Assembly: GCA_013813765.1 (NCBI GenBank)
Contig: JACCRC010000396.1
Location: 1-38,160, forward strand
Source of the DNA: Deltaproteobacteria bacterium
GTDB taxonomy: Bacteria > Myxococcota_A > Polyangia > Haliangiales > Haliangiaceae
Length of the DNA stretch: 38,160 nt
Direction of reading: 5' to 3'
Part shown: positions 2,252 through 38,160 of the stretch, one piece after another
Layout of the letters: each line of letters opens with the position of its first letter
Position numbering within the stretch: the stretch's first letter is position 1
Made by a program: the position numbers and the translations under genes
Notes under the pieces: model-generated
Seen by the model: only the letters and a program-made list of their open reading frames with translations
Told to the model about the DNA's origin: nothing
The model's database searches: none

Positions 2252-2364
2252 GGACCCCCCTGAGGGTGTCACAAAGAATGGGGATATGCCCGTCTCCATG
2301 CTGTCGCGCTCCTCCCCAGGCAACCGCGTGGCGCCCGCGCGTATTCCAGGGTTATGTTCCCCAC

Positions 2365-4965: not shown

Positions 4966-5003
4966 CCGAGGAGTGTAGTCGCGACGCCTCGAACGCGGTC
5001 CGC

Positions 5004-6163: not shown

Positions 6164-6184
6164 GGCGCCGATACTACCGCGCGG

Positions 6185-10379: not shown

Positions 10380-10408
10380 ATTTTATCAGGGGTGCGTGGG
10401 CCTGTCGG
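10380..10408 (-). promoter_or_regulatory. Candidate sigma70-type promoter for the 271-aa gene
   Basis: On the minus strand CCGACA (10403-10408), a 17-bp spacer and TAAAAT (10380-10385) are followed 6 nt later by the GTG start. The -10 is 5/6 to consensus and the -35 is 4/6 at ideal spacing. A start site 6-8 nt past the -10 would fall on or next to the start codon. Confidence 0.5.
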
Positions 10409-10829: not shown

Positions 10830-10989
10830 CGCACCGATTCTTCACCGTTGCGCCAGCGAGGCGGATCCGGCGATTTCATGCGCTGCACTCCACCGGCTCG
10901 CAGCTTCTCGCGGATTGCCGCCGCATGCGGCTTGCGGATGCTGCGTACGGCGCGCTTCGTGGAATCCACACGTAGGTATGCTGGGCGGC

Positions 10990-11349
10990 ATGGACGCCGA
11001 GCCCGACCTGCGCATCCTTCAAGCGAACGAGCGAACTCTGCTCGCGTGGGTTCGCACCGGACTCACGTTGATGGCGTTTGGATTTGTCGTCGCTCGCATG
11101 AGCGTCTGGCTCCACGTGGAGCATCCCGAACGGGAGGATGGTGCGTTAGGGTCATGGCTCGGGATCGCAGTCATCGCGCTCGGTACCGCTTGCCACATCG
11201 TGGGCGCGGTTCGCTTCGTACTGGCGCGTCGGGCGATTATCGCAGGCCGATCGATCGCGCCTGGCGCCGCCGGTCCGGTCGCGATCGCGACGCTGGTCTC
11301 GGCGCTCGGAATTGCAGCGATCGGCTACCTCGCCGCAAGCGCTGGCTGA
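10990..11349 (+). CDS. DUF202 (YidH-like) inner-membrane protein
   Basis: This 119-residue protein has three predicted transmembrane helices (about 18-36, 55-79 and 92-115). Its N-terminal motif LRILQANERTLLAWVRTGL is diagnostic of DUF202, a family of small membrane proteins of unknown biochemical role often found singly or in pairs. I chose the ATG at 10990 because the DUF202 block begins a few residues later. An ATG at 10978 would add four residues. TATGCT (10977-10982) ends 7 nt before 10990, another possible leaderless start. The 160-bp divergent region 10830-10989 otherwise holds nothing I can identify. Confidence 0.87.
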   Translation: MDAEPDLRILQANERTLLAWVRTGLTLMAFGFVVARMSVWLHVEHPEREDGALGSWLGIAVIALGTACHIVGAVRFVLARRAIIAGRSIAPGAAGPVAIATLVSALGIAAIGYLAASAG

Positions 11350-12886: not shown

Positions 12887-12955
12887 CGCCGCGGACGCTA
12901 GCACGCTGATTTCCGCGTTCACGCAGATAGTTGCAGCGCACGCAAGTTTGCCGCC

Positions 12956-21536: not shown

Positions 21537-21585
21537 GGGTGTCGAGTCTACTGCACCGCCGACAACGAGGCGCTACTGTTTGGCG

Positions 21586-24275: not shown

Positions 24276-24935
24276 CTACGCCGGGAGCTGGCCTTCGAAC
24301 ACGCGGAAGTGCTCGCCGAGCTCGGCGGTCCACGTCTTCGCCAGCTCGTCGGCCGCTTCCTTCGTCGGAACGACCTCGAGCCGCGACATGGTGGATCCCA
24401 CCTTCGGTCCCGCCACGATCCACTGCTGCGCCGGCGTGACCGGCAGGATCGCGATCTCGTACCTCTCGGGATCATCGAGAAACGCCGCGACCGCGACCGC
24501 GTCCTCGCGATTCGACGACCGGAACACCGCATCGTTCGAGCCGCGCGGCACCACGCCAAACCCTCCGCCGACGTACGGCAGGCTCTCGATGTACGGCCCA
24601 CGCGCCGCGCGAAACGCCGGCGCGAGCATGCCGACCGCGTGCAACAGCCCGACGTCCATCCGCCCGTCCTTCACCGCCACCGGCAGCGCGATCCCGAACA
24701 TCGTCACCTCACCACGCCGCTGCCCGGTCAGGCTGAACGGCGTCCCATCGACGAGGCCGGCCCACATCTGCACCTCGCCAAGTCCCTCGACTGTGGCCGC
24801 CTCGGGCTCGTGCTCGAGCAACGCGACAAGGCTCGCCGACATGCGCCCGTTGAAGAACCCGCGCAGCTCGAGCCCCACCGGCGGAATCTGCGAGAGCCGT
24901 GCATCGAGCTCCGCCACCGTCAGCCAATCGATCAT
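24276..24935 (-). CDS. Hypothetical protein co-transcribed with the Omp85-like gene
   Basis: This 219-residue cytosolic-looking protein (no signal peptide) is not recognised. It starts MIDWLTVAELDARLSQIPP and alternates hydrophobic strands with short helices (TMFGIALPVAVKDGRMDVGLL, WIVAGPKVGSTMSRLEVVP). The C-terminal helix ADELAKTWTAELGEHF is amphipathic. Its stop is 10 bp before the Omp85-like start, so it is the first gene of a two-gene operon. A 14-bp perfect palindrome lies 27 bp upstream. It is worth testing as a partner or regulator of the barrel protein, but there is no direct evidence. Confidence 0.72.
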   Translation of the reverse strand: MIDWLTVAELDARLSQIPPVGLELRGFFNGRMSASLVALLEHEPEAATVEGLGEVQMWAGLVDGTPFSLTGQRRGEVTMFGIALPVAVKDGRMDVGLLHAVGMLAPAFRAARGPYIESLPYVGGGFGVVPRGSNDAVFRSSNREDAVAVAAFLDDPERYEIAILPVTPAQQWIVAGPKVGSTMSRLEVVPTKEAADELAKTWTAELGEHFRVFEGQLPA

Positions 24936-24961
24936 GCGTCCAGATTACCGCAAGCGAACCC

Positions 24962-25037: not shown

Positions 25038-28000
25038 CTAGAAGTTCAGACGCATACCGAAGTTCGCGTTGAGCGGCGAGTAGCGGCCCGTCGTGTTCCG
25101 GAAGTTCGGGTTCTTGCCGATGGGCACCGCGCTCTCGTTGCCGCGATTGTCGATCGTCTTCACCCAGATGAGGTCCTGGTACGTACCGCCGGACACCGGG
25201 TTCGCGTTCTGCTCGGTACCCGACGTCGAGTTCGGGGCGGACAGCTTGAACTGCGGCGCGAAGTTGTCATCGACGCCCGCCGTTCCCTGGCGGTTGTAGA
25301 TGTTGTGCAGGTCGACGAAGAACTCGAGCTGCATGTTCTTGCCGAGGTTGCGCGCGTAGATCAGGCGGAGGTCGAGGCTGTGCTCGAAGTCCGTACGGCC
25401 GATCTGGCCGCGCGGCAGGAGGAACGACTCGTTTCCGCCGTACAGGTAGTGACCGCCGAGGGCGTTGATCGGCACGCCGGAGAGCGCGCGGAGGCGCGTA
25501 CCCACGGTGATGTTGCCGGCCTTCTTGAGGTCGAACGTGTAGTAGCCGTCGAGCTTGATGTAGTGCGGGCGATCCTGCGGCAGCGGGCCGACGCGGTTCG
25601 CGAGGAGCTCGATGAGGTCGTACTGCGACGAGATGTTCGGGTCGACCTGGCCGTTGTCGTAGGAGATGAGGCCCGGGTAGTTACCCTCGGTCTTCGAGAA
25701 CGTGTACGAGCCCTGCACGTACAGCTTCTTCGAGAAGCGGCGGGTCATCGTGAACTGCAGCGCGTTGTAGTCGCGGCGCGGCTTGTCGAAGATCCGGATG
25801 CCCTTGAAGAGATTGAGCTGGCGGGTCAGGCGCGCCTTCTCGTCGAGATTGGCCGGATCGACGCGGTCGATGCGGTCCATCAGCTTCTCCTCTTCGTCGG
25901 ACGACCACTCGCCCGGGTTCGCGATGATGTACGTGTCGGCGTTGTCGGTCGACACGTCCTCGATCACGCGGCCCATGCGGCGGTTCTGGAACGAGACGCC
26001 GATCTTCAGATCGTCGAGGATCTCGTACTCGAAGCCACCGATGATCTCGTCCATGTACTGCGGCTTGATGCCGGGGGCGATGAGCACGCCGGAGGCGCCG
26101 ATCAGTCGCTCCTGCGCACCGACGGCGTTCGGGTCGGTGAGGCAGCCTTCGCCGTTGCGAGCGTTGCCGATCGGTCCGCCGATGCGGGGGTCCGGGGCGC
26201 CGCACTGGCTCGGCGCGAAGTCCTGCTGGAAGTTCACCTCGCCGCCGAACGAGCGGTCGTTGATGCGCATCGGGATCGACTCGTAGAAGCGACCCCAGTG
26301 CGCGTAGATCTTCGAGCGGCCTTCCTTGGTCCAGTCGTAGAGGATGCCGACGCGCGGGGCAAGCATGCCCGTCATCGTCATGGCGTTCTTGCCGAGTGTC
26401 TCGTTGGTGAGCGGATCCACCTGGCCGCGGAGGAATTCGGCGTAGCGCAGCCGTTGCTCCTCGTACCGGACACCCGCGTTGAGCGTCAGGTTCGGCTGGA
26501 TCTGCCACGAGTCGCGCAGGTACACGGACCAGTTGAGCGTGTTGCCGGAGACCTCCGTGCCCGGCGCGCCGAGGTCGCCGGTGATGTAGTCGCAAACGTA
26601 CTGGATGTTGCCCATCGTCTGGCCCGAGGTGTCGGGCGTCGAACAACGGTTGTCGTAGCGCGGGTCGGTATTGCCCATCACCTGGGGCGAGCCCATCTTC
26701 CCGAGGAGCTGCACCCAGCGGTTCACGCGGATGAGGTCCGAGCCGACGTAGTTCTGGATGAACGCGCCACCGGAGTACAGGCGGGCCGTGTTGGAGGTGT
26801 TGTCCTCGACGTCGATGCCGGCCTTGATCTCGTGGCTGCCACCCGCCTTCATGCGCTGGGTGACGCTGAGCTTCGCGGCGCGGCGCTGCTGGAGGTCGTT
26901 AGAGATCGAGCCCGGCCCGCCGATGACGTAGGGGGCCGTGTCCATCGGGCAGTTGTTCGCGAGCAGCGGGTACGGATCGCTCATGCCGGGCGGCAGGTCG
27001 CGGCAGCCCTCATTCGTGGCATTGCTCTCGGCGCCGAAGCCGGGGCCCCAGACACCGAGCGAGCCGTCATAGAGGACCTGCAGCGGCTTGTCGGCCTGCG
27101 ACGGGTCGTACGGGTCGTCGCTGATCTTCTCGCGGTGCCAGCCGATCACCGCCTCGATCTCGGTCTTGTTGTCGTTGAACTTCGAGGTCCACTTCGTCGA
27201 GATGTCCGTCGTCAGCCCCGAGAGCTTGGAGCCGCTCGTCGCCGGGCCGTAGATGCCGGGGGACTCCGACTGACCGGGCTGCGCCTGGATCGCGAGCTGG
27301 CCCTGGTTCTCCGGGGTCGCCGCGTAGTTGATCTTGCCGAGAAAGCTGAGGGCCCGGGCCGATCGGCTACGGACTTCCTCGTCGAGGGTGTCGGTGATGT
27401 AGAAGCCGGTCTTGGGGTCGACGTCGGGAACGCTGTCCGCGTTGCCGCCCATCGCCTGGAGGCGCGCGTCGCAGGTCGAGAGGTTGCCGCTCGCCTCGAG
27501 CTTGCGGCAGTCAGTCTGGCGCTTCGTGGTGCGGGTGATGTCGACCTTGCTGACCTGGGGCGCCACGCCGACGAAGAACCACAGCTTGTCCTTGATGATC
27601 GGACCGCCGAGCTCGAAGCCGAAGTCGGCGTAGTACGCGAGGTCGCCGGTCGCGTCGATCGACGACGCGTTGTTCGGCGTCCTCTCCGCGGCGGCGGTCA
27701 GCGCGCCGGGCTGGAAGTACGCGAACACCGAGCCCTTGAACTCGTTCGAGCCGGACTTGGTGACGACGTTGACGACGCCACCGGTCGCACGGCCGTACTC
27801 GGCGTTATACCCGCCGGTGATGACCTCGATCTCCTCGATGAAGTCGTTGATCACCGGTGAGCCGACCGTGCCGAACGTCAGGCCCGTCGTGTTGACGCCG
27901 TCGACGTAGTACTGGTTCTCGAGCGACGACGAACCGGAGAACGACACGCCGAGCTGATCGCCCTGCGATCCGGCAGCCGCGCCGAGCGCCGACTCGAACG

Positions 28001-28457
28001 TGCGGCCGGGGACGGGGATGTTCTTGATGTAGTTCTTGTCGATCGTGATGCCCTGCGTCGTCGACGTCGGGTCGATCGTCGGCGCGGTGTCGGTGATCTT
28101 CACGACCTCACCGCCGGCCTGCGCCTGGTTGAGCTTCTGGAACACCGGCGTCACCTTGTTGACGCCGACGTTCACACCACCACGCTCGAGCGTGATGTCT
28201 GCGTAGTAGAACGTGATGAGGTAGTCACCGGGCGGAAGGTCAGTGATCTTGTACCCACCGTTCTCGTCGGTGATCGCCGTCTGCGCCTGCGCGAGCGACG
28301 GCGACGTCGCGATCACGGTGACGCCCGGCAGCTTCTCGCCGGTCTTCGAGTCGACGACCGCGCCCTGAACGGCGCCGGTGGTATTCGACTGCGAGTACGC
28401 CGAGCTCGCGAACGCTCCGAGGAGCGCCGTGGAGAGGAAGAGGTGCTTCGTGTTCAT
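25038..28457 (-). CDS. Oar-like TonB-dependent outer membrane receptor
   Basis: This is a 1139-residue outer-membrane receptor. It has a signal peptide (cleavage after AYS, about residue 22). A carboxypeptidase-regulatory-like Ig domain (about 27-105, with GAVVDSKTGEKLPGVTV and TDENGGYKITDLPPGDY) precedes a plug (about 135-245, with QYYVDGVNTTGLTFG and VITGGYNAEYGRATGGVVNVV). The rest is a beta barrel ending in GMRLNF. This order matches Oar-family receptors of myxobacteria, which are larger than siderophore receptors and have been linked to protein or peptide traffic. A TonB-box-like EVVKITDTAP lies before the plug. The ATG is preceded by GAGAGGATCTT and lies 9 bp after the lipoprotein stop, so the two are co-expressed. 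The cargo is unknown. Confidence 0.94.
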   Translation of the reverse strand: MNTKHLFLSTALLGAFASSAYSQSNTTGAVQGAVVDSKTGEKLPGVTVIATSPSLAQAQTAITDENGGYKITDLPPGDYLITFYYADITLERGGVNVGVNKVTPVFQKLNQAQAGGEVVKITDTAPTIDPTSTTQGITIDKNYIKNIPVPGRTFESALGAAAGSQGDQLGVSFSGSSSLENQYYVDGVNTTGLTFGTVGSPVINDFIEEIEVITGGYNAEYGRATGGVVNVVTKSGSNEFKGSVFAYFQPGALTAAAERTPNNASSIDATGDLAYYADFGFELGGPIIKDKLWFFVGVAPQVSKVDITRTTKRQTDCRKLEASGNLSTCDARLQAMGGNADSVPDVDPKTGFYITDTLDEEVRSRSARALSFLGKINYAATPENQGQLAIQAQPGQSESPGIYGPATSGSKLSGLTTDISTKWTSKFNDNKTEIEAVIGWHREKISDDPYDPSQADKPLQVLYDGSLGVWGPGFGAESNATNEGCRDLPPGMSDPYPLLANNCPMDTAPYVIGGPGSISNDLQQRRAAKLSVTQRMKAGGSHEIKAGIDVEDNTSNTARLYSGGAFIQNYVGSDLIRVNRWVQLLGKMGSPQVMGNTDPRYDNRCSTPDTSGQTMGNIQYVCDYITGDLGAPGTEVSGNTLNWSVYLRDSWQIQPNLTLNAGVRYEEQRLRYAEFLRGQVDPLTNETLGKNAMTMTGMLAPRVGILYDWTKEGRSKIYAHWGRFYESIPMRINDRSFGGEVNFQQDFAPSQCGAPDPRIGGPIGNARNGEGCLTDPNAVGAQERLIGASGVLIAPGIKPQYMDEIIGGFEYEILDDLKIGVSFQNRRMGRVIEDVSTDNADTYIIANPGEWSSDEEEKLMDRIDRVDPANLDEKARLTRQLNLFKGIRIFDKPRRDYNALQFTMTRRFSKKLYVQGSYTFSKTEGNYPGLISYDNGQVDPNISSQYDLIELLANRVGPLPQDRPHYIKLDGYYTFDLKKAGNITVGTRLRALSGVPINALGGHYLYGGNESFLLPRGQIGRTDFEHSLDLRLIYARNLGKNMQLEFFVDLHNIYNRQGTAGVDDNFAPQFKLSAPNSTSGTEQNANPVSGGTYQDLIWVKTIDNRGNESAVPIGKNPNFRNTTGRYSPLNANFGMRLNF

Positions 28458-28466
28458 AAGATCCTC

Positions 28467-29624
28467 TCAGGGTCCCGTCATGAAGTTGACGACGAACGGG
28501 GTCGGCAGCGGCTGCGCGAAGCCGTCCTTGATGTTCGCGGTCAGCGTGACCACGATGGCGGCGTTCGGCGGGAAGCCCGTACCCGTCGGGGTCAGCGTCA
28601 GGACCTTGCCCATTGTCAGGACGACGGTGAAGTTGGTGAACGCTGCGCCACCGGCGGTGACGGTGATGCCGCTGATGGCCATCGGGTCGAGCACGGTGTT
28701 CGAGACGAACACGATTGGCTCGGTGCGGCTGATGCCGGTCGCGTTGTTCGTGACGGTCACCGACTGGAACGTCATCGGCTCGGTCTTGAACTTCACGTTC
28801 GCGGTGTCACCCGGCGTGCACTCGGCGTCCGGGTCGCCGTTCGGAGGCGCGCACACGCGAACGTTCTGCTTGTCGACGACGTCCTCGGCGAAGAACAGGC
28901 TGCAGTCGAGGTTCGACGGCAGACCGCGCTCCGGGATCAGCACGATCGCCGGGCCGAGCGCCTCGAAGCCACCCATCGCGGGCGGCTGCTGGTTCCCCGA
29001 CGGGTTCCAGTAGCTCATGTTGATGTCGATCGGCACGTTGACCGTGCCGCAGCGGATGCCGACCGAGCCTGCGATCAGGTGCGTGTCATCGGCCGCGCCG
29101 TCCTGGTTCTTGTCATCCACGCCGACGGGACCGCCCTTGGGGATCATCGTCGTGCCGACGGTGCAGCCCCCGTCGAGCTCGCGCATGCACGTGGCGTAGA
29201 TGCCCTTGCAGGTGCTCGGCAGCACGTCCTGCGCGGTGGCGCACTTCGCGATGTCGTCCGGTGTCGCGCCGAGCGGCACGCGCGAGTACGCGTCGCCGTC
29301 GACGTTCGAGCGGCAGGCGATCTCCTCGAGGTTGTTACCGACGAGGAGCTCGTCCATGATGATGCGGAAGCCGTTGTTCGACAGCGCAGCGGACTGCGTC
29401 GAGTGCTGTTCGACGTCGATCGCGTCGGGATGCGTACCGAACGCGAAGATGCGACGCGAGCTCGTGCTCGTGTCGCCCGGCGTCGTGAACGTCTCGCGCA
29501 TCCGAACCTGCTGGACCTTGGGAGGTCCCTCGGGATGAAGGTTCGTCGAACTTTCGTAATCGGTGCAGGCTGCGACGCTCATCAGCGTCACAGCAGCAAA
29601 CAGAGTTCCAAGCGCCCTTTGCAT
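28467..29624 (-). CDS. Lipoprotein with Big_5-like Ig domains, receptor partner
   Basis: The 385-residue predicted lipoprotein (MQRALGTLFAAVTLMSVAAC, lipidated Cys20) is the first gene of the receptor transcript. The C-terminal 100 residues (PIVFVSNTVLDPMAISGITV..TLTPTGTGFPPNAAIVVTL..NIKDGFAQPL) follow the SbsA/Big_5 Ig-like pattern. An earlier segment (RETFTTPGDTSTSSRRIFAFGTHPDAIDV) may be another such unit. The middle has several cysteines (IACRS, AKCAT, STCKG, ATCMRE, GGCTVG), probably disulfides. Proteins of this kind paired with a TonB-dependent receptor can act as a surface lid or ligand binder, as in SusCD-type systems; no SusD similarity is visible. The start has a purine-rich RBS, and a strong promoter lies 48-77 bp upstream. 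Confidence 0.85.
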   Translation of the reverse strand: MQRALGTLFAAVTLMSVAACTDYESSTNLHPEGPPKVQQVRMRETFTTPGDTSTSSRRIFAFGTHPDAIDVEQHSTQSAALSNNGFRIIMDELLVGNNLEEIACRSNVDGDAYSRVPLGATPDDIAKCATAQDVLPSTCKGIYATCMRELDGGCTVGTTMIPKGGPVGVDDKNQDGAADDTHLIAGSVGIRCGTVNVPIDINMSYWNPSGNQQPPAMGGFEALGPAIVLIPERGLPSNLDCSLFFAEDVVDKQNVRVCAPPNGDPDAECTPGDTANVKFKTEPMTFQSVTVTNNATGISRTEPIVFVSNTVLDPMAISGITVTAGGAAFTNFTVVLTMGKVLTLTPTGTGFPPNAAIVVTLTANIKDGFAQPLPTPFVVNFMTGP

Positions 29625-29914
29625 AGTCTCTCTTGCTCCCAGCTCGATACCTAACGGCACGAAATCGACCGCTTGTATCCGTCGACGATGAAAGTTGTCA
29701 AGCGGTTCCCAAGACGTCTATCACCGTGGGATCTCCCGTCGAAACAGAGACGTGATCACGCACCGTGACAGCGGAGCCGATCTGGCGAAGGGCAATCAGC
29801 AATTGGTGTCGCAGGGCGCGCGACCGTCGACAGACTGCGACAGCGCGTGATGCACGCGCATCGCACTGAACACCGTCGGAGCTGCGTCAGACCGCCGCAG
29901 GAGGCGGCCCGTCA
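29625..29914. other. Intergenic region between the ExbD and lipoprotein-receptor genes
   Basis: This 290-bp gap holds the lipoprotein-receptor promoter (29672-29701). A small GC-rich inverted repeat near 29890-29910 (CCGCC...GGCGG) might help end the ExbD transcript but has no T tract. I see no ORF with coding character, tRNA or repeat. Local base composition is visibly less GC-rich around the promoter. Confidence 0.6.
29672..29701 (-). promoter_or_regulatory. Strong sigma70-like promoter for the lipoprotein-receptor operon
   Basis: On the minus strand TTGACA (29696-29701, perfect -35), an 18-bp spacer and TACAAG (29672-29677, 4/6) precede the lipoprotein ATG by about 47 nt. This gives a leader of about 40 nt with a purine-rich RBS. 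The receptor operon can therefore be controlled separately from the ExbB/ExbD/TonB operon upstream. Confidence 0.75.
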
Positions 29915-30385
29915 CTACAGACCGGGCTGGTCTTCCTTGACCTTGAGCGCGACCTTGATCTCGTCGTGATTCACGTCCGAGGCAAGGCTCCGGATCGTGT
30001 CCATCGTGCCGACAACGTCCCTCCAGGGCACCGCGGGCTCGAAGTCGACGAACACGACCTTCTCGGTACCGGTCGCCATCGCCTCGAGCTTGGGACGCAG
30101 CGTGCGCAGGAGGTCGGCGGACGGCACCGTGATGGGGCTGCCGTTGCCGTCGTCGAACTCGAAGTCGCCGCCGACCTTGGTCTTCACCGTCAGCTGGCTG
30201 GCGTTCGGGTCCGGCATCTCCTGCTCGTTGTCGATCTTTCGCGGAACCTGCAGGGTCTCCATCTTCATCATGATCGGCATCACGACGAGGAAGATGATGA
30301 GGAGCACGAGGAGCACGTCGATCAACGGAGTGACGTTGATCTCGGCCTGCAGTCCGCCGGGCTTTCCGCCGGTTGACATCGACAT
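29915..30385 (-). CDS. exbD: ExbD/TolR family protein (second copy)
   Basis: The 156-residue protein has one N-terminal membrane segment (about 21-37) and a periplasmic domain. The proton-path aspartate is Asp23 in INVTPLIDVLLVLLIIF. ExbD works with ExbB to convert proton-motive force into movement of TonB. The start is 2 bp after the previous exbD stop and has a strong AAGGAGG about 10 nt upstream. The periplasmic domain differs clearly from the first ExbD (DFEFDDGNGSPITVPSADLLRTLRP), so these are diverged paralogs, not a recent duplication. It is the last gene of the TPR-TonB-ExbB-ExbD-ExbD operon. Confidence 0.93.
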   Translation of the reverse strand: MSMSTGGKPGGLQAEINVTPLIDVLLVLLIIFLVVMPIMMKMETLQVPRKIDNEQEMPDPNASQLTVKTKVGGDFEFDDGNGSPITVPSADLLRTLRPKLEAMATGTEKVVFVDFEPAVPWRDVVGTMDTIRSLASDVNHDEIKVALKVKEDQPGL

Positions 30386-30387
30386 GG

Positions 30388-30903
30388 CTACTTGTCCTCC
30401 TTCGCGATCGCGAGGTCGACAGAGCCAACGCCCATCTGCTTGTTCAGGTACACGAGCACCGGGTAGACCTTCGAATACTCGACGTCGAGGTCAGCCTTGA
30501 GGTAGATGCGGCCGACACCCTCGGGGTTCTTCGGCGCCGCCCACGCTGCGTTGACCTGCTGGCTCATCTCCTTGAGCGTCGCGTCGGTCACCGGGCCCAG
30601 GTTGTTCTTCTCGATGAAGAGGTTTCCATCCTTATCGATGGTCACCACCGGCTGCATCTTGTCCTTCTCGGACGAGTAGTTCTTCGCCTGCGGGAGCCGC
30701 ACGTCGTGGCCGCGACCCATGATCAGGGTCATCAGCATGAAGATGATGAGCAGCACCAGCATGACGTCGACGAGCGGCGTCACGTTGATGTCGTTGCGAA
30801 CGTGGTCGAGCACGGCGGGCTTCCCCGACATGCGCCAGCGGCGCTTGTGCTTCGAATGCTTCCCGCGGGAAGCACCGCTCATCGATGAGGACGCGAGGGA
30901 CAC
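30388..30903 (-). CDS. exbD: ExbD/TolR family protein (first copy)
   Basis: The 171-residue ExbD has a longer, very basic cytosolic N-terminus (SRGKHSKHKRRWR). One membrane helix follows with the conserved Asp46 in INVTPLVDVMLVLLIIF, then a periplasmic domain (VVTIDKDGNLFIEKNNLGP). It is predicted to form the stator with ExbB. The GTG start is 2 bp past the exbB stop and lacks a strong RBS, so expression probably relies on coupling. An ATG at residue 8 or 25 is possible. Two different ExbD subunits next to one ExbB is also the arrangement of the Agl gliding motor (AglR-AglQ-AglS) of Myxococcus, so a heteromeric stator is plausible. Confidence 0.93.
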   Translation of the reverse strand: MSLASSSMSGASRGKHSKHKRRWRMSGKPAVLDHVRNDINVTPLVDVMLVLLIIFMLMTLIMGRGHDVRLPQAKNYSSEKDKMQPVVTIDKDGNLFIEKNNLGPVTDATLKEMSQQVNAAWAAPKNPEGVGRIYLKADLDVEYSKVYPVLVYLNKQMGVGSVDLAIAKEDK

Positions 30904-30905
30904 GC

Positions 30906-31592
30906 TTAGGCCCGGCCCTCACGCAGCACGTAGTCGATGAACTCGCTCGACACGTCGTTCATGTCGATGACGTACTGCTCGACGCGCGACGTGAAGAAGT
31001 TGAACGCCATGGCCGCGATGATCGCGACGCCGAGGCCGAGCGCGGTGGACACGAGCGCTTCGGAGATCTTCGGGCCGATCTCGTTGATGGTCACCGTGCC
31101 GCCCTTGAGCAGCTGGAAGGTTCCGAGAATACCGATGACGGTACCGAGGAGGCCGATGAACGGCGTCGCGGAGGCGACGGTGCCGAGGTACGCGAGGCCC
31201 TTGCGCATGTTCGAGGTCTCGCGCTCCTTCACGCGCTCGAGGGCGCGGTTCACGGAGTCGACGAGGTCGAAGTCACCGACGTCATCCGGGCCTTCCGTCT
31301 TCAGCGCCTCGCGGCCCTGGAGCAGTGCCGTGAGACCCGCCTGCATCACGTTCGCGACGGGGCTCTTCGGCATCCCGCGCGCGGCGTTGAGCGCCTCGTT
31401 GACCTTGTGCTGGCGGAGGAACTCGCCGAGCTGCTGTACGTACCGGATGCTCTGCTCGCTCGCCGAGCGGAACGTCAGGAGGCGCTCGGTGATCACGTAG
31501 AACATGAACACGGACATGCCGATCATCATCACCGTGATGAGCTTCACGATGATGCTCATGTGTTCCCAGAGCTCTACGAGGTCGATTCCCAT
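30906..31592 (-). CDS. exbB: ExbB/TolQ/MotA-family proton channel protein
   Basis: This 228-residue inner-membrane protein has three predicted transmembrane segments: IIVKLITVMMIGMSVFMFYV near the N-terminus, a central GLAYLGTVASATPFIGLLG and a third STALGLGVAIIAAMAFNFF. The last two carry the conserved Thr/Gly-rich TolQ/ExbB pore motifs. A cytosolic loop of about 100 residues separates the first two, as expected. It forms the pentameric scaffold around ExbD. The start has AGGA 8 nt upstream. TonB ends 38 bp before it and ExbD follows 2 bp after. Confidence 0.94.
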   Translation of the reverse strand: MGIDLVELWEHMSIIVKLITVMMIGMSVFMFYVITERLLTFRSASEQSIRYVQQLGEFLRQHKVNEALNAARGMPKSPVANVMQAGLTALLQGREALKTEGPDDVGDFDLVDSVNRALERVKERETSNMRKGLAYLGTVASATPFIGLLGTVIGILGTFQLLKGGTVTINEIGPKISEALVSTALGLGVAIIAAMAFNFFTSRVEQYVIDMNDVSSEFIDYVLREGRA

Positions 31593-31630
31593 GGCACGTT
31601 CCTAGCTGAGGTTTCTCAGTCCTCGCAGCG

Positions 31631-32521
31631 TCACTTCTGCGAGTAGATGAAGGTGACGGCGGTGCACACGGGCACGGCCTTTCCGTTCACGGCGTAGGGG
31701 CGGTACTTCCACTCTCCACGCATCTTTCCCTGGATCTTCGAGTCGTACGCACCGAAGCCGGTGCTCTTCAGCATCGTCACGCCGGTGACCTCGCCGCCGG
31801 CGTTGATGCAGAGCTTGAAGCTGCCGACGAGCTTGTCCTTGCCGGACCGCTGGATCTCGGTCTTCGTGACGTCGTCGGGGATGATCATCTTCTCGCCCGA
31901 GATACGGCTGCCTTCGAGCAGCGTGGGGGGCACGTTCTGCGGCGGAGCGGGCGGAGGAGGCGGCGGCGGAGGCGGCGGAGGCGCACCGACGACACCATTG
32001 ATGTCACCGCCGACCACACCGCCGGCAACACCACCGACCTCACCACCCTCGACGCCGTTCGGATCGCCCTGGTCCTCGACCTTCTGGACTTCCTGCTTCT
32101 CGATCTTGACCGGCTGGACGATGTCCTTGACCTTGATCTTCTTCGGGACGATCTGAACGTTCTGCGGACGCGCGCCACCGGGCGGCGGCGGTGGAGGCGG
32201 CGGCGGCGGCGGGGCGACGGCGAGGTCGACCTGCGTCTTCGGCCGCTCGAGCATCTCGATCTCCCAGATCGACTGGATCCACAACGACACGAACACGACG
32301 AGGTGAACGAAGACCGCGCCGGTCAGCAGCGGTGCGGCCCACTTCGGCGCCTTGCGGTTCTTCGCATCCGCGAAGTTCTTTCCGAACTGACCGGCGGCGG
32401 GCGCGCGCTCCTTCGGCGTACCCGGCGAGCGATACGGATCCAGCGCTGGCTTCCCCTTCACCACGGGCTCGTCATCCCGGATGAACGGGGTGGTCTTGTC
32501 GTCGTCTTCGTTGATCGGCAT
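31631..32521 (-). CDS. tonB: TonB-family energy transducer with two 11-proline tracts
   Basis: The 296-residue protein has an unusually long cytosolic N-terminus (1-60). One membrane helix follows (about 62-84) with a central His73, placed like the essential His of E. coli TonB. The periplasmic part has a first run of 11 prolines (104-114), a Lys/Val/Glu-rich rod (KKIKVKDIVQPVKIEKQEVQKV), a Gly/Val-rich flexible stretch (157-179) and a second run of 11 prolines (181-191). The C-terminal TonB-like domain (about 225-296) contains Cys238 and Cys286, which could form a disulfide. It should couple the ExbB-ExbD-ExbD stator to the nearby Oar-like receptor. RBS AAGGAG is 12 nt upstream. Confidence 0.92.
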   Translation of the reverse strand: MPINEDDDKTTPFIRDDEPVVKGKPALDPYRSPGTPKERAPAAGQFGKNFADAKNRKAPKWAAPLLTGAVFVHLVVFVSLWIQSIWEIEMLERPKTQVDLAVAPPPPPPPPPPPGGARPQNVQIVPKKIKVKDIVQPVKIEKQEVQKVEDQGDPNGVEGGEVGGVAGGVVGGDINGVVGAPPPPPPPPPPPAPPQNVPPTLLEGSRISGEKMIIPDDVTKTEIQRSGKDKLVGSFKLCINAGGEVTGVTMLKSTGFGAYDSKIQGKMRGEWKYRPYAVNGKAVPVCTAVTFIYSQK

Positions 32522-32547
32522 GGTGTTCGGCTGCTCCTTCGAGGCGA

Positions 32548-33621
32548 TCAGCCGCCGGCCTTCTCAGCCGGGCCCCCCGTGGCGGACGGGGTTTGGGTGG
32601 GTGTTACTGGTGCCGACGCACCTTCGCCTGCGGCCTTCTTCGCCTCTTCGGCTAGAACGCGCGACAGTCGCTGGAGATCTTGCGCACTTGCGCGATCGAT
32701 TGCGGACGCCCAGGAGGGGCCGTGGGCGAGCGCGCGGAAGTTGTAGATCGAGGCCTGGAGCCCGTAGAGTTTCGGGTTCTTGGGCGACAGCTCGGCGGCC
32801 TTCTGGAGCGCACCGATGCCGCGGTCCGCCAGCTCGATCGACTCGACCGCGGTCAGCGACTTCGAGTTGAGCTTGGACCAGGCGACGTTGCCGATGAACT
32901 GGTAGGCGCCGACCTTGTTCGAGGGGTCCGTCGCGATCTCGGCGACCTTCGTGTACCACTCGATCGACTTGCGCCAGTCGCCCGCCTTGAGGTTGATGCC
33001 AGCGAGGTTGCCCATGATCTCGGGGTCGTTCGGCTTGTCCTTGAGCAGCCCCGTCCAGTAGTCGAGCGCGAGCTTGAACTGACCGGAGTCGATCCACACC
33101 TGCGTCATCTGCTTGCGGGTGTCGTCATCCTTTGGGTTGGCCTTGAGCCACGCGAGGAAGTGCGTGGCGGCCGCCTCGGCGAGCTGCTCCGGTGAGAGCA
33201 GGCAGAGGTCCGTCTTCTGGCAGTGATAGCTCGAAGCGCAGACGTTCTTGTCGTCGCAGTCGTCGAACCGGCGGTCGTCGTCTTTGACGCAGACCTGGTG
33301 GTTCGAATACGTGACCTTCGGGATCACATCGCAGGCGAACGTGCCCTTGATGCCGAGGCGCACGGGCTTGTCGAGACCCGGCTTGAAGATCTTGGAGTAC
33401 GCGAGGCCGAGGTTGTAGTGGATGATCGGATCCTCGACCTGCGTCAGCGCCTTCTCGTACTCGGCGGCCGCATCGATGAACGCGGTCTCGCGGAACAGGC
33501 GGTTGCCCTTGCGGGTACGGTTGCGCCCGTCGAGCTCTTCACATCCCATCGATCCCAGCGAGACCGCGGAGATCACCGCGATCGCGAGGATCGTCTTCCA
33601 ACCGTCGAGGCGCCGGCTCAT
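32548..33621 (-). CDS. TPR lipoprotein with a six-cysteine insert
   Basis: The 357-residue protein starts the TonB operon. A lipoprotein signal ends SLGSMGC (Cys27). TPR-like helices follow (GNRLFRETAFIDAAAEYEKAL, then NYNLGLAYSK-type pattern, and further repeats from about 170 to 310 such as GNLAGINLKAGDWRKSIEWYTKV). Between the first and later repeats lies a hydrophilic insert with Cys97, 111, 122, 128, 134 and 140, probably disulfide-bonded. The C-terminus is Ala/Pro/Thr-rich and disordered. TPR lipoproteins in such operons probably scaffold the trans-envelope complex in the periplasm. The ATG directly follows a promoter with almost no leader. Confidence 0.86.
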   Translation of the reverse strand: MSRRLDGWKTILAIAVISAVSLGSMGCEELDGRNRTRKGNRLFRETAFIDAAAEYEKALTQVEDPIIHYNLGLAYSKIFKPGLDKPVRLGIKGTFACDVIPKVTYSNHQVCVKDDDRRFDDCDDKNVCASSYHCQKTDLCLLSPEQLAEAAATHFLAWLKANPKDDDTRKQMTQVWIDSGQFKLALDYWTGLLKDKPNDPEIMGNLAGINLKAGDWRKSIEWYTKVAEIATDPSNKVGAYQFIGNVAWSKLNSKSLTAVESIELADRGIGALQKAAELSPKNPKLYGLQASIYNFRALAHGPSWASAIDRASAQDLQRLSRVLAEEAKKAAGEGASAPVTPTQTPSATGGPAEKAGG

Positions 33622-33631
33622 GGGGCGCGCG

Positions 33632-33660
33632 ACTATACATATCCGGGTGGGGTGCATCAA
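33632..33660 (-). promoter_or_regulatory. Sigma70-like promoter for the TPR-TonB-ExbB-ExbD-ExbD operon
   Basis: On the minus strand TTGATG (33655-33660), a 17-bp spacer and TATAGT (33632-33637, 5/6) end 10 nt before the ATG of the TPR lipoprotein. Transcription would start about 2-4 nt before the ATG, so the mRNA is predicted to be leaderless or nearly so. Confidence 0.75.
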
Positions 33661-33781
33661 CCGAGTTGCCTGAGGGACCTGTACTACGCTCCCGCGCACA
33701 TCTGCATGGCGGTTCGGTGACACGTGATCGCAGGGTGCAGCACGTGCGACGCCATGACGTCCCAGGTCCGCCCAGATCCAA

Positions 33782-34417
33782 TTAGATGAGCGTGAATGAC
33801 AGGTTGATGTCGTAGCTCTCGAGATCCGCTTCCTCGCCGGCGGCGTGCGTGATCGCCATCGTTTTGCCGGCGATGCACTGCCGCGTCGCCTCCTTCGCGT
33901 CACCGTTGACGTCGTTGACGATGAGGTCGGCCTTGTTGATCAGGACCTTCTTGTCCTTGATCGCGATGTTGATCGAGCCCTCGAGGCGCGGCTTCTCGCC
34001 GCGCACGCCATCGGGCATCAGCTTGACGCACTCGTGCATGGCGTCGCGCACGCGGTCGGCGATCGCCTTCGTCAGCGTCGGCTGGAGCTTGCGGTTGTTT
34101 GCCGGCGCCGGGTTCGCGCTCGGCGTGAATGGCTCGTGATTGCCGCTGCGCATGTCGTGAACGATCGCGCCGTTGACCGAGTACGCCTTCGGATTCTCGG
34201 GAGGCTTGCTTCCCGGCGGCGTGGGCAACGACGGGTCGAGCGGCCTGCCACCGGCCGGGCCGTGCTGGGTTCCCACCCACGCGCCAGAGCCGCTACCCTT
34301 GGCAGACGTCACGGTCGGCTTCACCTCGTCGCCGCCGCCCTTGATCGCGAACCAGAGTCCCACGATCGCCGCGACCGCCACGGCCGCCATGATGGCGAAG
34401 ATGGTGCGGTTGCTCAT
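33782..34417 (-). CDS. Membrane-anchored protein, possible AgmX/PglI-like C-terminal domain
   Basis: The 211-residue protein has one N-terminal membrane helix (about 5-25, FAIMAAVAVAAIVGLWFAI), a Gly/Ser/Pro-rich linker (about 30-80) and a C-terminal domain from about 108. That domain holds two cysteines (MHECVKLMPDG and TRQCIAG) around an alternating strand region (GSINIAIKDKKVLINKADLIVNDV), ending in YDINLSFTLI. The arrangement resembles the AgmX/PglI-type C-terminal domain (C...strand...C, ending in hydrophobic strand) found in myxobacterial envelope proteins, but the match is tentative. It lies 10 bp after the birA stop, so it may be part of the nadC-birA transcript, and precedes the TonB operon by 160 bp. 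Confidence 0.78.
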   Translation of the reverse strand: MSNRTIFAIMAAVAVAAIVGLWFAIKGGGDEVKPTVTSAKGSGSGAWVGTQHGPAGGRPLDPSLPTPPGSKPPENPKAYSVNGAIVHDMRSGNHEPFTPSANPAPANNRKLQPTLTKAIADRVRDAMHECVKLMPDGVRGEKPRLEGSINIAIKDKKVLINKADLIVNDVNGDAKEATRQCIAGKTMAITHAAGEEADLESYDINLSFTLI

Positions 34418-34427
34418 ACCGCTTGTA

Positions 34428-35237
34428 CTAGCACGAGGTGGAGAGAAGCTCCGGCGGGGCCCGGAACCCGTCGGGCCGGATCACTTCCACGTCGCCGCTG
34501 CGGACCCGATGGATCGCGCCGCCACCGTCGCGCAGGAGAAGCGCGCCGTCGTCGTCGAGCCCCCACACCCAGGCGGTCAGTGGAGTGCCATCGACCGTGG
34601 CGCGCGCCACAAGGCCCAGCGCCATGCGCTCCTGCCACGCGGGGATGATCTCCTGGAGACCCATCGCGACGTAGCGATCGACCCACCGCTCGACGTGTGC
34701 GAGCAGGATGGCGATGAACGCCTCGCGATCGACCGGCGCACCCGCCGCTCGCTCGAGCGTCACTGCGATGTCGGTCACGGGCTCGGGCAGCGCGCCGCAG
34801 AGGTTGACGCCGATACCCATCACGACGGACTCGAGGCGCGTGCCCTGGCTCTGCGCTTCGACCAGGACACCCGCGAGCTTCTTGCCATCGACGAGCACGT
34901 CGTTGGGCCACTTCAGCGTCGCGTTCGCACCGACGGCGCGCGCCGCATCGCACAGGCCGATGCCGATCGCGAGCGTCATCGGCGGAACGTCGACGAGCGG
35001 CAGCGGCGGACGCAGCACCGCGGACAGGTACAGCCCCATGCCGGGCGGCGATTGCCACTCCCTGCCCTCGCGGCCACGGCCGGCGCGCTGGGCGTGGGCG
35101 ATCACGATCGTTCCGTGCCGCGCGCCTGCGCGAGCGAGCCGGCCGGCTTCGTCGTTCGTGGATCCGCACTCCGCGAGATCGATCCGCTGCGAGCCCAGCC
35201 ACCGCGCGATCGGCGGGATCGAGTGGTTGCCGGTCAT
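34428..35237 (-). CDS. birA: Biotin--[acetyl-CoA-carboxylase] ligase (class I, no HTH domain)
   Basis: The 269-residue enzyme attaches biotin to a lysine of biotin carboxyl carrier proteins via biotinyl-AMP. Key motifs: STNDEA (26-31); the adenylate loop GRGREGREW (53-61) followed by [16 protein letters not shown] (109-114) with the catalytic Lys; and GVLVE (123-127). A C-terminal SH3-like domain follows ([27 protein letters not shown]). No N-terminal winged-helix domain is present, so it is a monofunctional ligase without biotin-operon repression. Its ATG overlaps the nadC stop (ATGA), so translation is coupled. Confidence 0.94.
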
Positions 35238-36100
35238 GTCCGCACGTCGAGGCCGATGTCCACGGACGGTGCGGAGTGCGTGAGCGCGCCGACGGAGATG
35301 AGGTCCGCCCCTGCACGCGCGTAGTCGCCGATCGTGGCGAGCGTGATGCCGCCGGAGACCTCGACGATCACGTTGCGACCGTGCGCACGTGCGGCCGCGA
35401 CCTGGACCTGCGGCGGCGTCATGTTGTCGAGCAGCACGATCTCGGCGCCGGCGTTCAGCGCCTCGTCGAGCTCGCCGAGGTTCGTGACCTCGACCTCGAT
35501 CCGCAGCGGATGCGGCGCGCGGGCTTTCGCGGCCTCGACCGCGGCGCGCACCGAGCCGCACGCGGCGATGTGGTTGTCCTTGATCAGGATCCCGGAGCCG
35601 AGATCGAAGCGGTGGTTCCCGCAGCCACCGGCGAGGACCGCGGCCTTCTCGAGCACGCGGAAGCCCGGCGTGGTCTTGCGTGTGTCGACGACGCGCGCCT
35701 TCGTGCCCGCGACCGCCTCCGCGTAACGCTTCGAGAGCGTGGCGACACCGGAGAGCCGCTGCGCGAAGTTCAGCGCCGTGCGCTCCGCGGTGAGCACGCT
35801 GTGCGCCGGACCGCGCGCCGTGAGCAGCAAGCCACCGCGCTCGATCCGCGAGCCATCCGGTCCGTGGATCTCGACCTCGATCCGCGGATCGACCATGTGG
35901 AACACCGCGGTCGCGATGTCGACACCGAACGCGACGATCGGCTCCCGTGCGTTCATCTCCGCGCTGACAACCGGACCATTGGCGCCGAGCGTGACCTGGC
36001 TCGTCACGTCGCCGCGACCGAGATCTTCGTCGAGCGCGAGCTCGATCAGGCGGCGGACGGCGGGGATCGCCGCGAGGCCTCGAACAGCCGAGCTCGTCAT
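35234..36100 (-). CDS. nadC: Nicotinate-nucleotide pyrophosphorylase (quinolinate phosphoribosyltransferase)
   Basis: The 288-residue NadC converts quinolinate and PRPP to nicotinate mononucleotide in de novo NAD synthesis. Signatures: [10 protein letters not shown] (25-34), [13 protein letters not shown] (106-118), DTRKTTPG (139-146) and HR then LIKDNHI (163-178) with the catalytic Lys174. Length is normal for the family. I chose the ATG at 36098-36100. A GTG at 36118 would add six residues but lies upstream of the -10 hexamer, so it would not be on the transcript. TATAAC ends 9 nt before the ATG. The downstream birA start overlaps the stop. Confidence 0.95.
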
Positions 36101-36109
36101 TTCGGCGCT

Positions 36110-36140
36110 GTTATACACGTCCCGTCCGACGCGGGATCAA
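36110..36140 (-). promoter_or_regulatory. Candidate promoter for nadC-birA
   Basis: On the minus strand TTGATC (36135-36140) and TATAAC (36110-36115, 5/6) are separated by 19 bp, slightly long. The -10 ends 9 nt before the nadC ATG, so the mRNA would have a leader of only 1-3 nt. The region is divergent from the unknown gene at 36236. Confidence 0.6.
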
Positions 36141-36642: not shown

Positions 36643-36696
36643 TACCTCCGCACCGCCTTCGGCGCTGCTGCGCGGCCCGACTCGTCGGGCCTTGCG
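36643..36696. repeat. Double-hairpin repeat, copy B (convergent intergenic)
   Basis: Stem 1 is GCACCGCC-TTC-GGCGCTGC (36650-36668, one mismatch). Stem 2 is GGCCCGAC-TC-GTCGGGCC (36674-36691, perfect 8 bp). It fills the gap between two convergent stop codons (36637 and 36698), the position of a bidirectional terminator, though no T tract follows. Confidence 0.8.
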
Positions 36697-36697
36697 C

Positions 36698-37354
36698 TCA
36701 CGACCACTGCTCCACGGCCCAGCCCCGGCGGCGCGCGTGCCGGCGCAGGCGCGTGTCGGGGTTCACCGCGATCGCGGTGCCGACGCGCTGGAGCATCGGG
36801 AGGTCGTTGTAGCTGTCGGAGTAGAAGTAGCTGGCTCTCAGGTCCACGCCGTGGCGCTCGGCCCACTTCTCGGCGAGCGTCACCTTGTGGCGGCCGAAGC
36901 ACAGCGCGCTGGCCTTGCCCGTGAACGACCCGCCCAGGACCTCCAGCTCGGTCGACAGCACGTGATCGATGCCAACGCCGCGCGCGACCGGGCGCGCGGC
37001 GTAGCAGGTGGAGCCGGTCGCGAGCACGACGAGGTGACCCGCGCGGCGGTGGTGGTCGATCGCGACGCGCGCGGCGGGAGCGACCTGCGCAGCGATGTGA
37101 GCCCGGTACCAGACGTCGCACTTCGCGATCATCTCGTCCTCCGAGTCACCCTCGAGATCCAGGCAGAGCTTCGTGAACACGGTCTCCATGTCGAGCACGG
37201 CGAGCTTGTAGAGCGCGCTCCAGTACACGGCCTTCGCGACCATCTTCCCGGGGAGCTCGCCGCGCCGGTAGAGGAACTTCGTCCACGACATGCCGGAGTC
37301 CACGCGCAGGAGCGTGTTGTCCATGTCGAACAGGGCGGCGGTCTGCAGCGTCAT
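36698..37354 (-). CDS. HAD-IB family phosphatase (SerB-like)
   Basis: The 218-residue protein has all HAD motifs: [11 protein letters not shown] (motif I, nucleophile Asp and acid/base Asp), [11 protein letters not shown] (motif II) and [11 protein letters not shown] (motif III, with the metal-binding Asp in DLP). The cap between motifs I and II is helical ([15 protein letters not shown]). HAD-IB enzymes are phosphomonoesterases; phosphoserine is one known substrate, but neighbours here give no support for serine biosynthesis. Lipid or sugar phosphates are equally possible. The ATG overlaps the stop of the upstream membrane protease gene, so the two are translationally coupled. Confidence 0.91.
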
Positions 37355-38091
37355 CGGAGCACCATCAGGTCCAGGAGGCGGATCAGAATGTTGGATCCAG
37401 CATGGGTCAGTGTCGAGGCCAAGATCGACCCCGTCGAGGACCGCATCCATCCGAACAGGAGGCCGGGGAAGAACGTCGCGAGCGCGCGCGGGTCGCCGTC
37501 CTTCGGGAGATGGATGAGCGCGAACATCGCAGCAGAGATCACGAGCGCGAGGCCGATGCCGCCCCCGAGGATCCGGCGCTTCGGCGGGAACCGGCGCTCG
37601 AGCAGGCCGAGCAGGAAGCCGCGAAAGAACAGCTCCTCGGGTAGCGCGACGACGATCAGCTGCACGGCGCAGAACTCGGCGAGCTTCCCGGTGAGCGCCG
37701 GCGCGTGGATCCCCGCGAGGCCGCCGTAGCGCGAGCACATGTTGTTCGGCACCAGGTTCGAGAGCAGATCCGAGCCGCACGCGATCTCGTAGAACGCGAA
37801 GTACCCGAGCGCGAAGATCGGAAAGATCACGGCGATCGCGACGCCGGCGGTGATCAGGCCCTTCTTGAGCGGCTCCGCGTGGAATCCATAGTCGACGAGG
37901 TCCTCCTTGCGCCGCCACACGTAGAACACGGGCACGTAGAGGAACAGCACGGCCACCAGCGCCGAGCCCAGATGGCCGATCGCCGGCAGCGTGACGTTGA
38001 TCCGGACGAGGCCGGTGACGAGCACCGCGACGACCGCCCACGCGATGTACGCGTCGCGGGCGTCCCGGGCCGGGTCACGAGCAGCGGGCAC
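37351..38091 (-). CDS. CPBP-family intramembrane glutamic endopeptidase
   Basis: This 246-residue protein has about six predicted transmembrane helices. The active-site motifs of the CPBP (Abi/Rce1-like) family are present: PEELFFRG (Glu152, Glu153), FALIHLP (His194) and LTHAGSNI (His230, Asn234). Members cleave substrates within the membrane. Some myxobacterial ones process C-terminal sorting signals, but I see no such substrate in this window. The initiator ATG lies at the end of a short non-hydrophobic lead ([13 protein letters not shown]). It is coupled to the HAD phosphatase gene by an ATGA overlap. Repeat copy C sits about 20 bp upstream. Confidence 0.92.
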
Positions 38092-38111
38092 TGCCCGCAG
38101 ATTACCTCATC

Positions 38112-38160
38112 GACCTGCGCACCGCCTTCGGCGGTGCTGCGCGGCCCGACCCGTCGGGCC
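38112..38160. repeat. Double-hairpin repeat, copy C (at window edge)
   Basis: Stem 1 is GCACCGCC-TTC-GGCGGTGC (38119-38137, perfect). Stem 2 is GGCCCGAC-CC-GTCGGGCC (38143-38160, perfect), cut off just as it ends. The leading CGACCTGCG and spacing match copies A and B. It lies upstream of the CPBP protease gene. Confidence 0.8.

What the first reader, a model, noticed from the sequence alone, without database searches (positions are those of the whole stretch)
33619..33660. Leaderless start for the TonB operon and a wider leaderless pattern
TTGATG-17-TATAGT ends 10 nt before the TPR lipoprotein ATG, leaving no room for an RBS. nadC (TATAAC, 9 nt before its ATG) and the 271-aa gene (CCGACA-17-TAAAAT, 6 nt before its GTG) show the same layout. 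Weaker cases are DUF1844 (TATGTT, 6 nt), the YwqK-like gene (TAGTAT, 7 nt) and DUF202 (TATGCT, 7 nt). First genes of units lack Shine-Dalgarno sequences, while internal genes such as the second exbD have strong ones. Frequent leaderless initiation is well documented in actinobacteria and Deinococcus but less so for this kind of organism.
Basis: partly seen in the sequence, partly recalled or inferred. Interest (0 to 1): 0.58.

Follow-up and report, generated by a model that had tools for sequence, protein, structure and literature searches.

The report
Leaderless gene starts in Kofleriaceae-type myxobacterium
About a fifth of the genes in this soil myxobacterium appear to begin their messenger RNA at, or within a few letters of, the start codon, so the ribosome must start without the usual landing sequence; this start mode is known elsewhere, but here it looks as common as in the groups famous for it.

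Summary
All six layouts exist as stated. In 1.09 Mb of the genome, 173 of 865 genes carry TANNNT with its 5' base at -15 to -12 of the start; decoy positions give 6-14. A count that needs no gene calls shows the same peak: TANNNT-N6/N7-ATG 70/82 against about 20 at other spacings. It is seen before ATG and GTG, not before TTG or CTG. Boxed genes lack Shine-Dalgarno motifs: 2 of 173 against 95 of 692 in -10..-4. The TonB-operon promoter is strongly conserved: TATAGT (at most one mismatch) 9-12 nt before the start in 16 of 23 loci, window included. Best explanation: sigma-70-type promoters whose start site falls on or just before the start codon, giving leaderless mRNAs. This is a known kind: Zheng 2011 predicted leaderless genes in 8 of 33 delta-proteobacteria, 5.7-20.6% of genes. 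Within Myxococcota the signal is patchy. No 5' ends were measured.

The parts
33655..33660 (-). -35 element TTGATG of the TonB-operon promoter
   Evidence: TTG conserved in 13-14 of 16 aligned loci
33632..33637 (-). -10 element TATAGT, 17 nt from the -35, ending 10 nt before the ATG
   Evidence: at most 1 mismatch, 9-12 nt before an in-frame start in 16 of 23 loci, decoy distances 2, 1, 4 of 23
33622..33631 (-). CGCGCGCCCC between -10 and ATG; predicted transcription start lies in its second half (inferred leader about 2-4 nt)
   Evidence: sequence; start site inferred, not measured
32548..33621 (-). TPR lipoprotein gene, first gene of the exbB/exbD/TonB-receptor operon
   Evidence: Pfam TPR families; match in 28 of 35 relatives (29 of 36 genomes with the own one)
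36110..36115 (-). -10 element TATAAC, 9 nt before the nadC ATG
   Evidence: a TA-type box 6-12 nt before the start read by eye in 13 of 19 distinct relatives
35234..36100 (-). nadC
   Evidence: QRPTase_C/N
10380..10385 (-). TAAAAT 6 nt before GTG of the 271-aa ORF (start not supported)
   Evidence: no homologue in 35 relatives; coding model starts further in
2353..2358 (+). TATGTT 6 nt before the DUF1844 gene (2365-2646)
   Evidence: Pfam DUF1844; relative L192 has TATCTT 7 nt before its ATG
6171..6176 (-). TAGTAT 7 nt before the 352-aa gene 5105-6163
   Evidence: no Pfam family
10977..10982 (+). TATGCT 7 nt before the DUF202 gene (10990-11349)
   Evidence: Pfam DUF202
21574..21579 (+). TACTGT 6 nt before a glycosyltransferase gene (21586-22929)
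24942..24947 (-). TAATCT 6 nt before gene 24276-24935
12895..12900 (-). TAGCGT 8 nt before gene 11444-12886
4972..4977 (-). TACACT 6 nt before GTG of gene 3769-4965
38099..38104 (-). TAATCT 7 nt before GTG of a Rce1-like gene (37351-38091)

Best explanation
These are ordinary housekeeping (sigma-70 type) promoters whose -10 box sits so close to the start codon that transcription begins on, or one to a few bases before, the A or G of ATG/GTG. The mRNA therefore has no leader or one of a few bases, carries no Shine-Dalgarno sequence, and must be translated by leaderless initiation (start codon recognised directly by a ribosome carrying initiator tRNA). About a fifth of genes in this Kofleriaceae-type myxobacterium use this layout. 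Genes overlapping or nearly overlapping the one before them use Shine-Dalgarno sites instead. Shown from sequence: the box, its distance, its specificity, its conservation and the lack of SD. Inferred: the position of the 5' end and the mode of translation.
For: Distance peak of TANNNT in 173 of 865 genes, decoys 6-14; gene-call-free peak at spacers 6-7 before ATG (70, 82 against about 20) and GTG (69, 51 against about 33), none before TTG (4, 10) or CTG (30, 36), as expected if RNA starts on a purine. TA...T is the best of 64 patterns. SD 4-mers in -10..-4: 2 of 173 boxed, 95 of 692 unboxed. Replicated in another genus of the family, G085: 45 of 288 genes, decoys 1-6; SD in 3 of 45. TonB-operon promoter conserved in 16 of 23 loci by script, plus L151 and L162 by eye, whose ATG the script did not test. 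nadC box conserved. Spacer 6-7 matches the usual distance from -10 box to start site (recalled).
Against: No 5'-end data. The two flagship cases have spacers of 9-10 nt, so a leader of about 1-4 nt is likely: leaderless only in the loose sense (under 8 nt, definition seen in PMC10783764). The -35 signal is weak across boxed genes. My gene caller is home-made and its start calls are imperfect. Seven of 30 TPR loci were dropped because the N-terminus did not align, and 5 of the 23 tested show no good box. Other promoters further upstream may coexist.
Confidence: 0.87

Rival explanations
1. The boxes are real but minor promoters: the main transcripts start further upstream and have ordinary leaders.
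For: Only sequence is available; several boxed genes lie 5-29 nt behind another gene and may also be read through from it.
Against: Boxed genes have almost no SD (2 of 173 in -10..-4), so a leadered transcript would have no ordinary ribosome site. In the TonB operon -35, -10 and distance are conserved together.
Confidence: 0.08
2. AT-rich, weakly structured or S1-binding translation signals upstream of the start codon, not promoters.
For: AT content rises around -8 to -13. Nakagawa 2017 (PMC5397173, passages seen) discusses such signals in other groups.
Against: The enrichment is for TA-three any-T and not for other AT-rich patterns, is sharply placed at spacers 6-7, and GCTA is the top 4-mer at -14, as for an extended -10. 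The TonB case has a matched TTG -35 with 17-nt spacing.
Confidence: 0.03
3. Chance, composition or wrong start calls.
For: Some starts called by coding score are wrong (nadC and the TPR gene were called 18 and 36 nt too far upstream); the 271-aa case is doubtful.
Against: The peak appears without any gene calls and in whole-genome counts. Two named Desulfobacterota genomes show none: 3222 against 3414 and 542 against 593.
Confidence: 0.02

Closest known systems
TA-led (leaderless) genes of bacteria, Zheng et al. 2011 (PMC3160421; passages and Table 2 seen)
   Same: TANNNT about 12 bp upstream of the start; sharply placed; lacking SD; high-GC genome with a TAnnnT rather than TAtaaT pattern; share of genes close to Actinobacteria (19.2% average) and to the top of their delta-proteobacteria (20.6%).
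   Different: Here also common in genes 5-29 nt behind a codirectional gene, not only proximal genes; uncultivated Kofleriaceae-type lineage, unlikely to have been in their 2011 set (not checked; supplements not readable here).
Leaderless-rich Actinobacteria and Deinococcus-Thermus (Shell et al. 2015, search listing only; Zheng 2011, passages)
   Same: About 20% or more of genes with -10 at leaderless distance. The D. radiodurans plasmid MP1 gives 17 against 7 at the decoy spacing (small numbers).
   Different: This lineage keeps ribosomal protein bS21 (own genome and 262 of 282 Myxococcota), while the same search finds none in Corynebacterium glutamicum.
GeneMarkS-2 class of bacterial genomes with leaderless transcription (described in the StartLink paper PMC9581028, passages seen; original paper not held)
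   Same: Promoter-box signal upstream of a large minority of genes, SD for the rest.
   Different: Whether any Kofleriaceae genome was placed in that class is not stated in the passages seen.

Membership tests
Leaderless (TA-led, sigma-70) genes | TANNNT-type -10 box about 10-12 bp upstream of the start codon, above chance | tested here: met
   173 of 865 genes, decoys 6-14; TA...T best of 64 patterns
Leaderless (TA-led, sigma-70) genes | No Shine-Dalgarno sequence in the boxed genes | tested here: met
   2 of 173 against 95 of 692 in -10..-4; 11 of 173 against 200 of 692 in the wider window, which the box itself partly fills
Leaderless (TA-led, sigma-70) genes | Start at a purine (ATG/GTG), since the start codon is the transcript's 5' end | tested here: met
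   Excess at spacers 6-7 for ATG and GTG, none for TTG or CTG
Leaderless (TA-led, sigma-70) genes | Confined to first genes of transcription units | tested here: inconclusive
   10 of 190 when gap is under 5 nt but 36 of 119 at 5-29 nt; these may be separate units
Leaderless (TA-led, sigma-70) genes | Primary 5' end at or within a few nt of the start codon | not testable with these tools
   No transcript data
Leaderless (TA-led, sigma-70) genes | Translation by direct binding of the start codon without SD pairing | not testable with these tools
   Needs in vitro or reporter assays
Sigma-70 promoter (TonB operon case) | -35 TTGnnn and -10 TAnnnT about 17 bp apart, conserved in relatives | tested here: met

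The most novel reading that the evidence does not exclude
In this part of Myxococcota leaderless initiation is the default for every gene that does not overlap its upstream neighbour. Apparent operons are broken into single leaderless units whose promoters are squeezed into gaps of 9-30 nt, and the upstream gene's TAG/TAA stop codon itself can serve as the first bases of the next gene's -10 box (10 of 45 boxed pairs with gaps 5-40). Because the trait varies strongly between families of one phylum that almost all keep bS21, the phylum would be a natural test bed for what lets a bacterium switch between SD-led and leaderless starts.
Probability: 0.3. Interest if true: 0.55.

Novelty: new member of a known kind. 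Interest (0 to 1): 0.36.

Why it matters
Start-site annotation in these high-GC myxobacteria is biased if tools expect Shine-Dalgarno sites. Leaderless mRNAs respond differently to some antibiotics and stresses (stated in the StartLink passages for antibiotics; stresses recalled). A phylum in which the leaderless share differs between families, while bS21 is nearly universal, could help to find what permits heavy leaderless use.

Tried and rejected
Loss of bS21 as a cause of the leaderless excess: rejected; PF01165 is found in the own genome and 262 of 282 Myxococcota, and the 20 misses include many incomplete genomes.

A regulon sharing the TonB-operon promoter: a search of the 646-kb sample for TATAGTCGCG and TTGATG-N16-18-TATA-like sites found only the operon itself.

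Anti-SD of the 16S rRNA: not obtainable; RF00177 gave 0 of 1 and 1 of 36 (a class-level genome, not used).

Ratio of spacer 6 to spacer 16 as a measure across the phylum: it correlates with background density (rho -0.89), so I rely on excess per Mb instead. Codon phase as a confounder of spacer 16: checked with spacer 15 in 28 of the 282 genomes, picked by me from high and low results; 16 high ones stay at 2.0-6.7 fold, 12 low ones at 0.87-1.93. The built-in reversed-pattern control is poor: for the own genome it gives 325, while decoy spacings give 150-177.

TGNTA without the final T as a second box: gene-based counts rise to 117 of 503 (decoys 4-14) and a TGCTA form is conserved before two window genes, but annotation-free counts are too small to stand alone.

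E. coli as a negative control: the record was fetched but the genome search did not hold it, so it was not tested.

Rows dropped: 64 of 929 called genes without a usable start or upstream stretch; 7 of 30 TPR loci.

Full report
What and where. The window (38,160 bases, 67.7% GC) is contig C37 of an 8.1-Mb, 562-contig genome, 88% complete. Its nadC is 87% identical to that of a Kofleriaceae MAG, and the other eight of the nine best hits are titled Myxococcales, Deltaproteobacteria or delta proteobacterium, so the organism is a Kofleriaceae-type myxobacterium. The gene at the finding is a TPR lipoprotein gene (32548-33621, minus) at the head of an operon with one MotA_ExbB and two ExbD proteins, a Big_5 protein and a TonB-dependent receptor.

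Observation. TTGATG-17-TATAGT-10 nt-ATG is exactly as described, as are the nadC and 271-aa layouts and the three weaker ones. Five more window genes have the same layout. The second exbD does have an AAGGAGG site.

Genome-wide test. I fetched 1,085,544 bases (92 pieces) of the own genome and called genes with a simple dicodon model whose start choice does not use any upstream signal (first version on 646 kb). TANNNT with its 5' base at -15..-12 occurs in 173 of 865 usable genes. Six decoy windows of the same width give 12, 14, 11, 6, 6 and 9. Without gene calls, TANNNT-Nk-ATG peaks at k=6 and 7 (70 and 82, background about 20), GTG likewise (69 and 51, background about 33), TTG and CTG not (4, 10 and 30, 36). 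In the first 646 kb, allowing alternative starts of similar coding score raises the corrected share from 18% to 23-24%, and adding the TGNTA form to 27-29%. Whole-genome counts: 495 at spacer 6, 177 at spacer 16, 150 at spacer 15.

Box and Shine-Dalgarno exclude each other. SD-like 4-mers lying in -10..-4 occur in 2 of 173 boxed and 95 of 692 unboxed genes. By context, box and SD shares are: divergent genes 26% and 12% (SD decoy 10%); codirectional gap 100 or more 11% and 23%; 30-99 nt 28% and 19%; 5-29 nt 30% and 23%; under 5 nt 5% and 48% (SD decoy 13%). In 10 of 45 boxed pairs with gaps 5-40 the box begins on the upstream stop codon. Stops starting TA are 14 of 21 at gaps 9-10 against 47 of 122 at other gaps, the 11 pairs at gaps 11-12 left out (p=0.03): suggestive only.

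Conservation. Thirty loci with TPR relatives (one of them the window's own, L133) came from 36 genomes searched (29 with a match). Of the 23 whose N-terminus aligns, 16 have TATAGT or TATAAT with at most one mismatch 9-12 nt before an in-frame ATG (10 nt in 11 of 16); decoy distances give 2, 1 and 4 of 23. L151 and L162 also carry it, by eye. TTG of the -35, the C-rich spacer and the CGCGCGCC after the -10 are conserved as well, most strongly within the genus, with TATAGT and TTG kept in other genera. In some relatives (L137, L138, L144) the ATG inside the -35 TTGATG is out of frame, so it is not the start. nadC: among 19 distinct relatives with an aligned N-terminus (duplicates between collections removed), 13 have a TA-type box 6-12 nt before the start by eye, but only five are strict TANNNT. 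In two relatives (L060, L061) the start is shifted to a downstream GTG and the box follows it. The 271-aa gene has no homologue in 35 relatives.

Replication and range. G085, another genus of the family: 45 of 288 genes boxed, decoys 6, 1, 3, 5, 2; SD in 3 of 45. In 282 Myxococcota genomes (tables transcribed by hand into), spacer 6 exceeds spacer 16 at a Bonferroni level of 0.001 in 102 of 282. The own genome's excess (39.3 per Mb) ranks eighth. The fold ratio depends strongly on base composition (rho -0.89), but families with similar background differ: f33 (19 genomes) 29.5 per Mb, against 5.8 in f23 (13), 5.4 in f25 (14) and 3.4 in f19 (21). A second decoy on 28 chosen genomes agrees. Two named Desulfobacterota genomes (behind L079 and L109) show no excess.

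Mechanism. The simplest account is a sigma-70 -10 box placed so that the RNA begins on, or a few bases before, the start codon. Spacer 6-7 puts the start on or next to the A or G itself; the TonB-operon and nadC spacers (10 and 9) predict leaders of about 1-4 nt. Steps shown: box, distance, specificity, lack of SD, conservation. Steps inferred: 5' ends and leaderless translation.

Known or new. Zheng et al. 2011 described exactly this signal (TANNNT, about 12 bp upstream) and found leaderless genes in 8 of 33 delta-proteobacterial genomes, average 15.8%, range 5.7-20.6% (PMC3160421, passages and Table 2; which genomes is in a supplement I could not read). Searches for 'leaderless' with Myxococcus, Haliangium ochraceum (22), Sorangium cellulosum (23), Myxococcota (48), Anaeromyxobacter (49) and myxobacteria (50, ten of 16 listed) showed no paper whose title or abstract start concerns leaderless mRNA in myxobacteria; only listings were seen, and most subscription papers are not in that library. 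So this is a new, well-supported member of a known kind.

Noticed in passing
own-genome loci L002, L014, L030, L042, L043, L049, L228, L231, L236: The upstream gene's TAG/TAA stop codon doubles as the first bases of the next gene's -10 box in 10 of 45 boxed pairs with gaps 5-40; TA-type stops are over-represented at gaps 9-10 (p=0.03).
   Followed up: partly
window about 33680-33689 and the same place in L134-L137, L141-L144, L146, L150, L162: A GTAGT-type element recurs roughly 20-40 nt upstream of the -35 of the TonB-operon promoter; possibly a regulator site.
   Followed up: no
window 33782-34417 and 6185-8437 (UvrD helicase): An ATGCTA/GTGCTA box without the final T of TANNNT lies at leaderless distance and is conserved in most relatives whose N-terminus aligns, suggesting an extended -10 (TGnTA) form.
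   Followed up: partly
Myxococcota genomes: bS21 is nearly universal (262 of 282), unlike Corynebacterium in the same search, so leaderless-rich bacteria need not lack bS21.
   Followed up: yes
window 25038-33621: Operon with a TonB-dependent receptor having a carboxypeptidase-regulatory-like domain (resembles Oar of Myxococcus, recalled), two ExbD, one ExbB and a TPR lipoprotein.
   Followed up: no
window about 36648-36700 and 38115-38160: Two similar GC-rich stretches (CGCACCGCCTTCGGCG...GCGGCCCGAC) beside gene ends, possibly a repeated terminator-like element.
   Followed up: no
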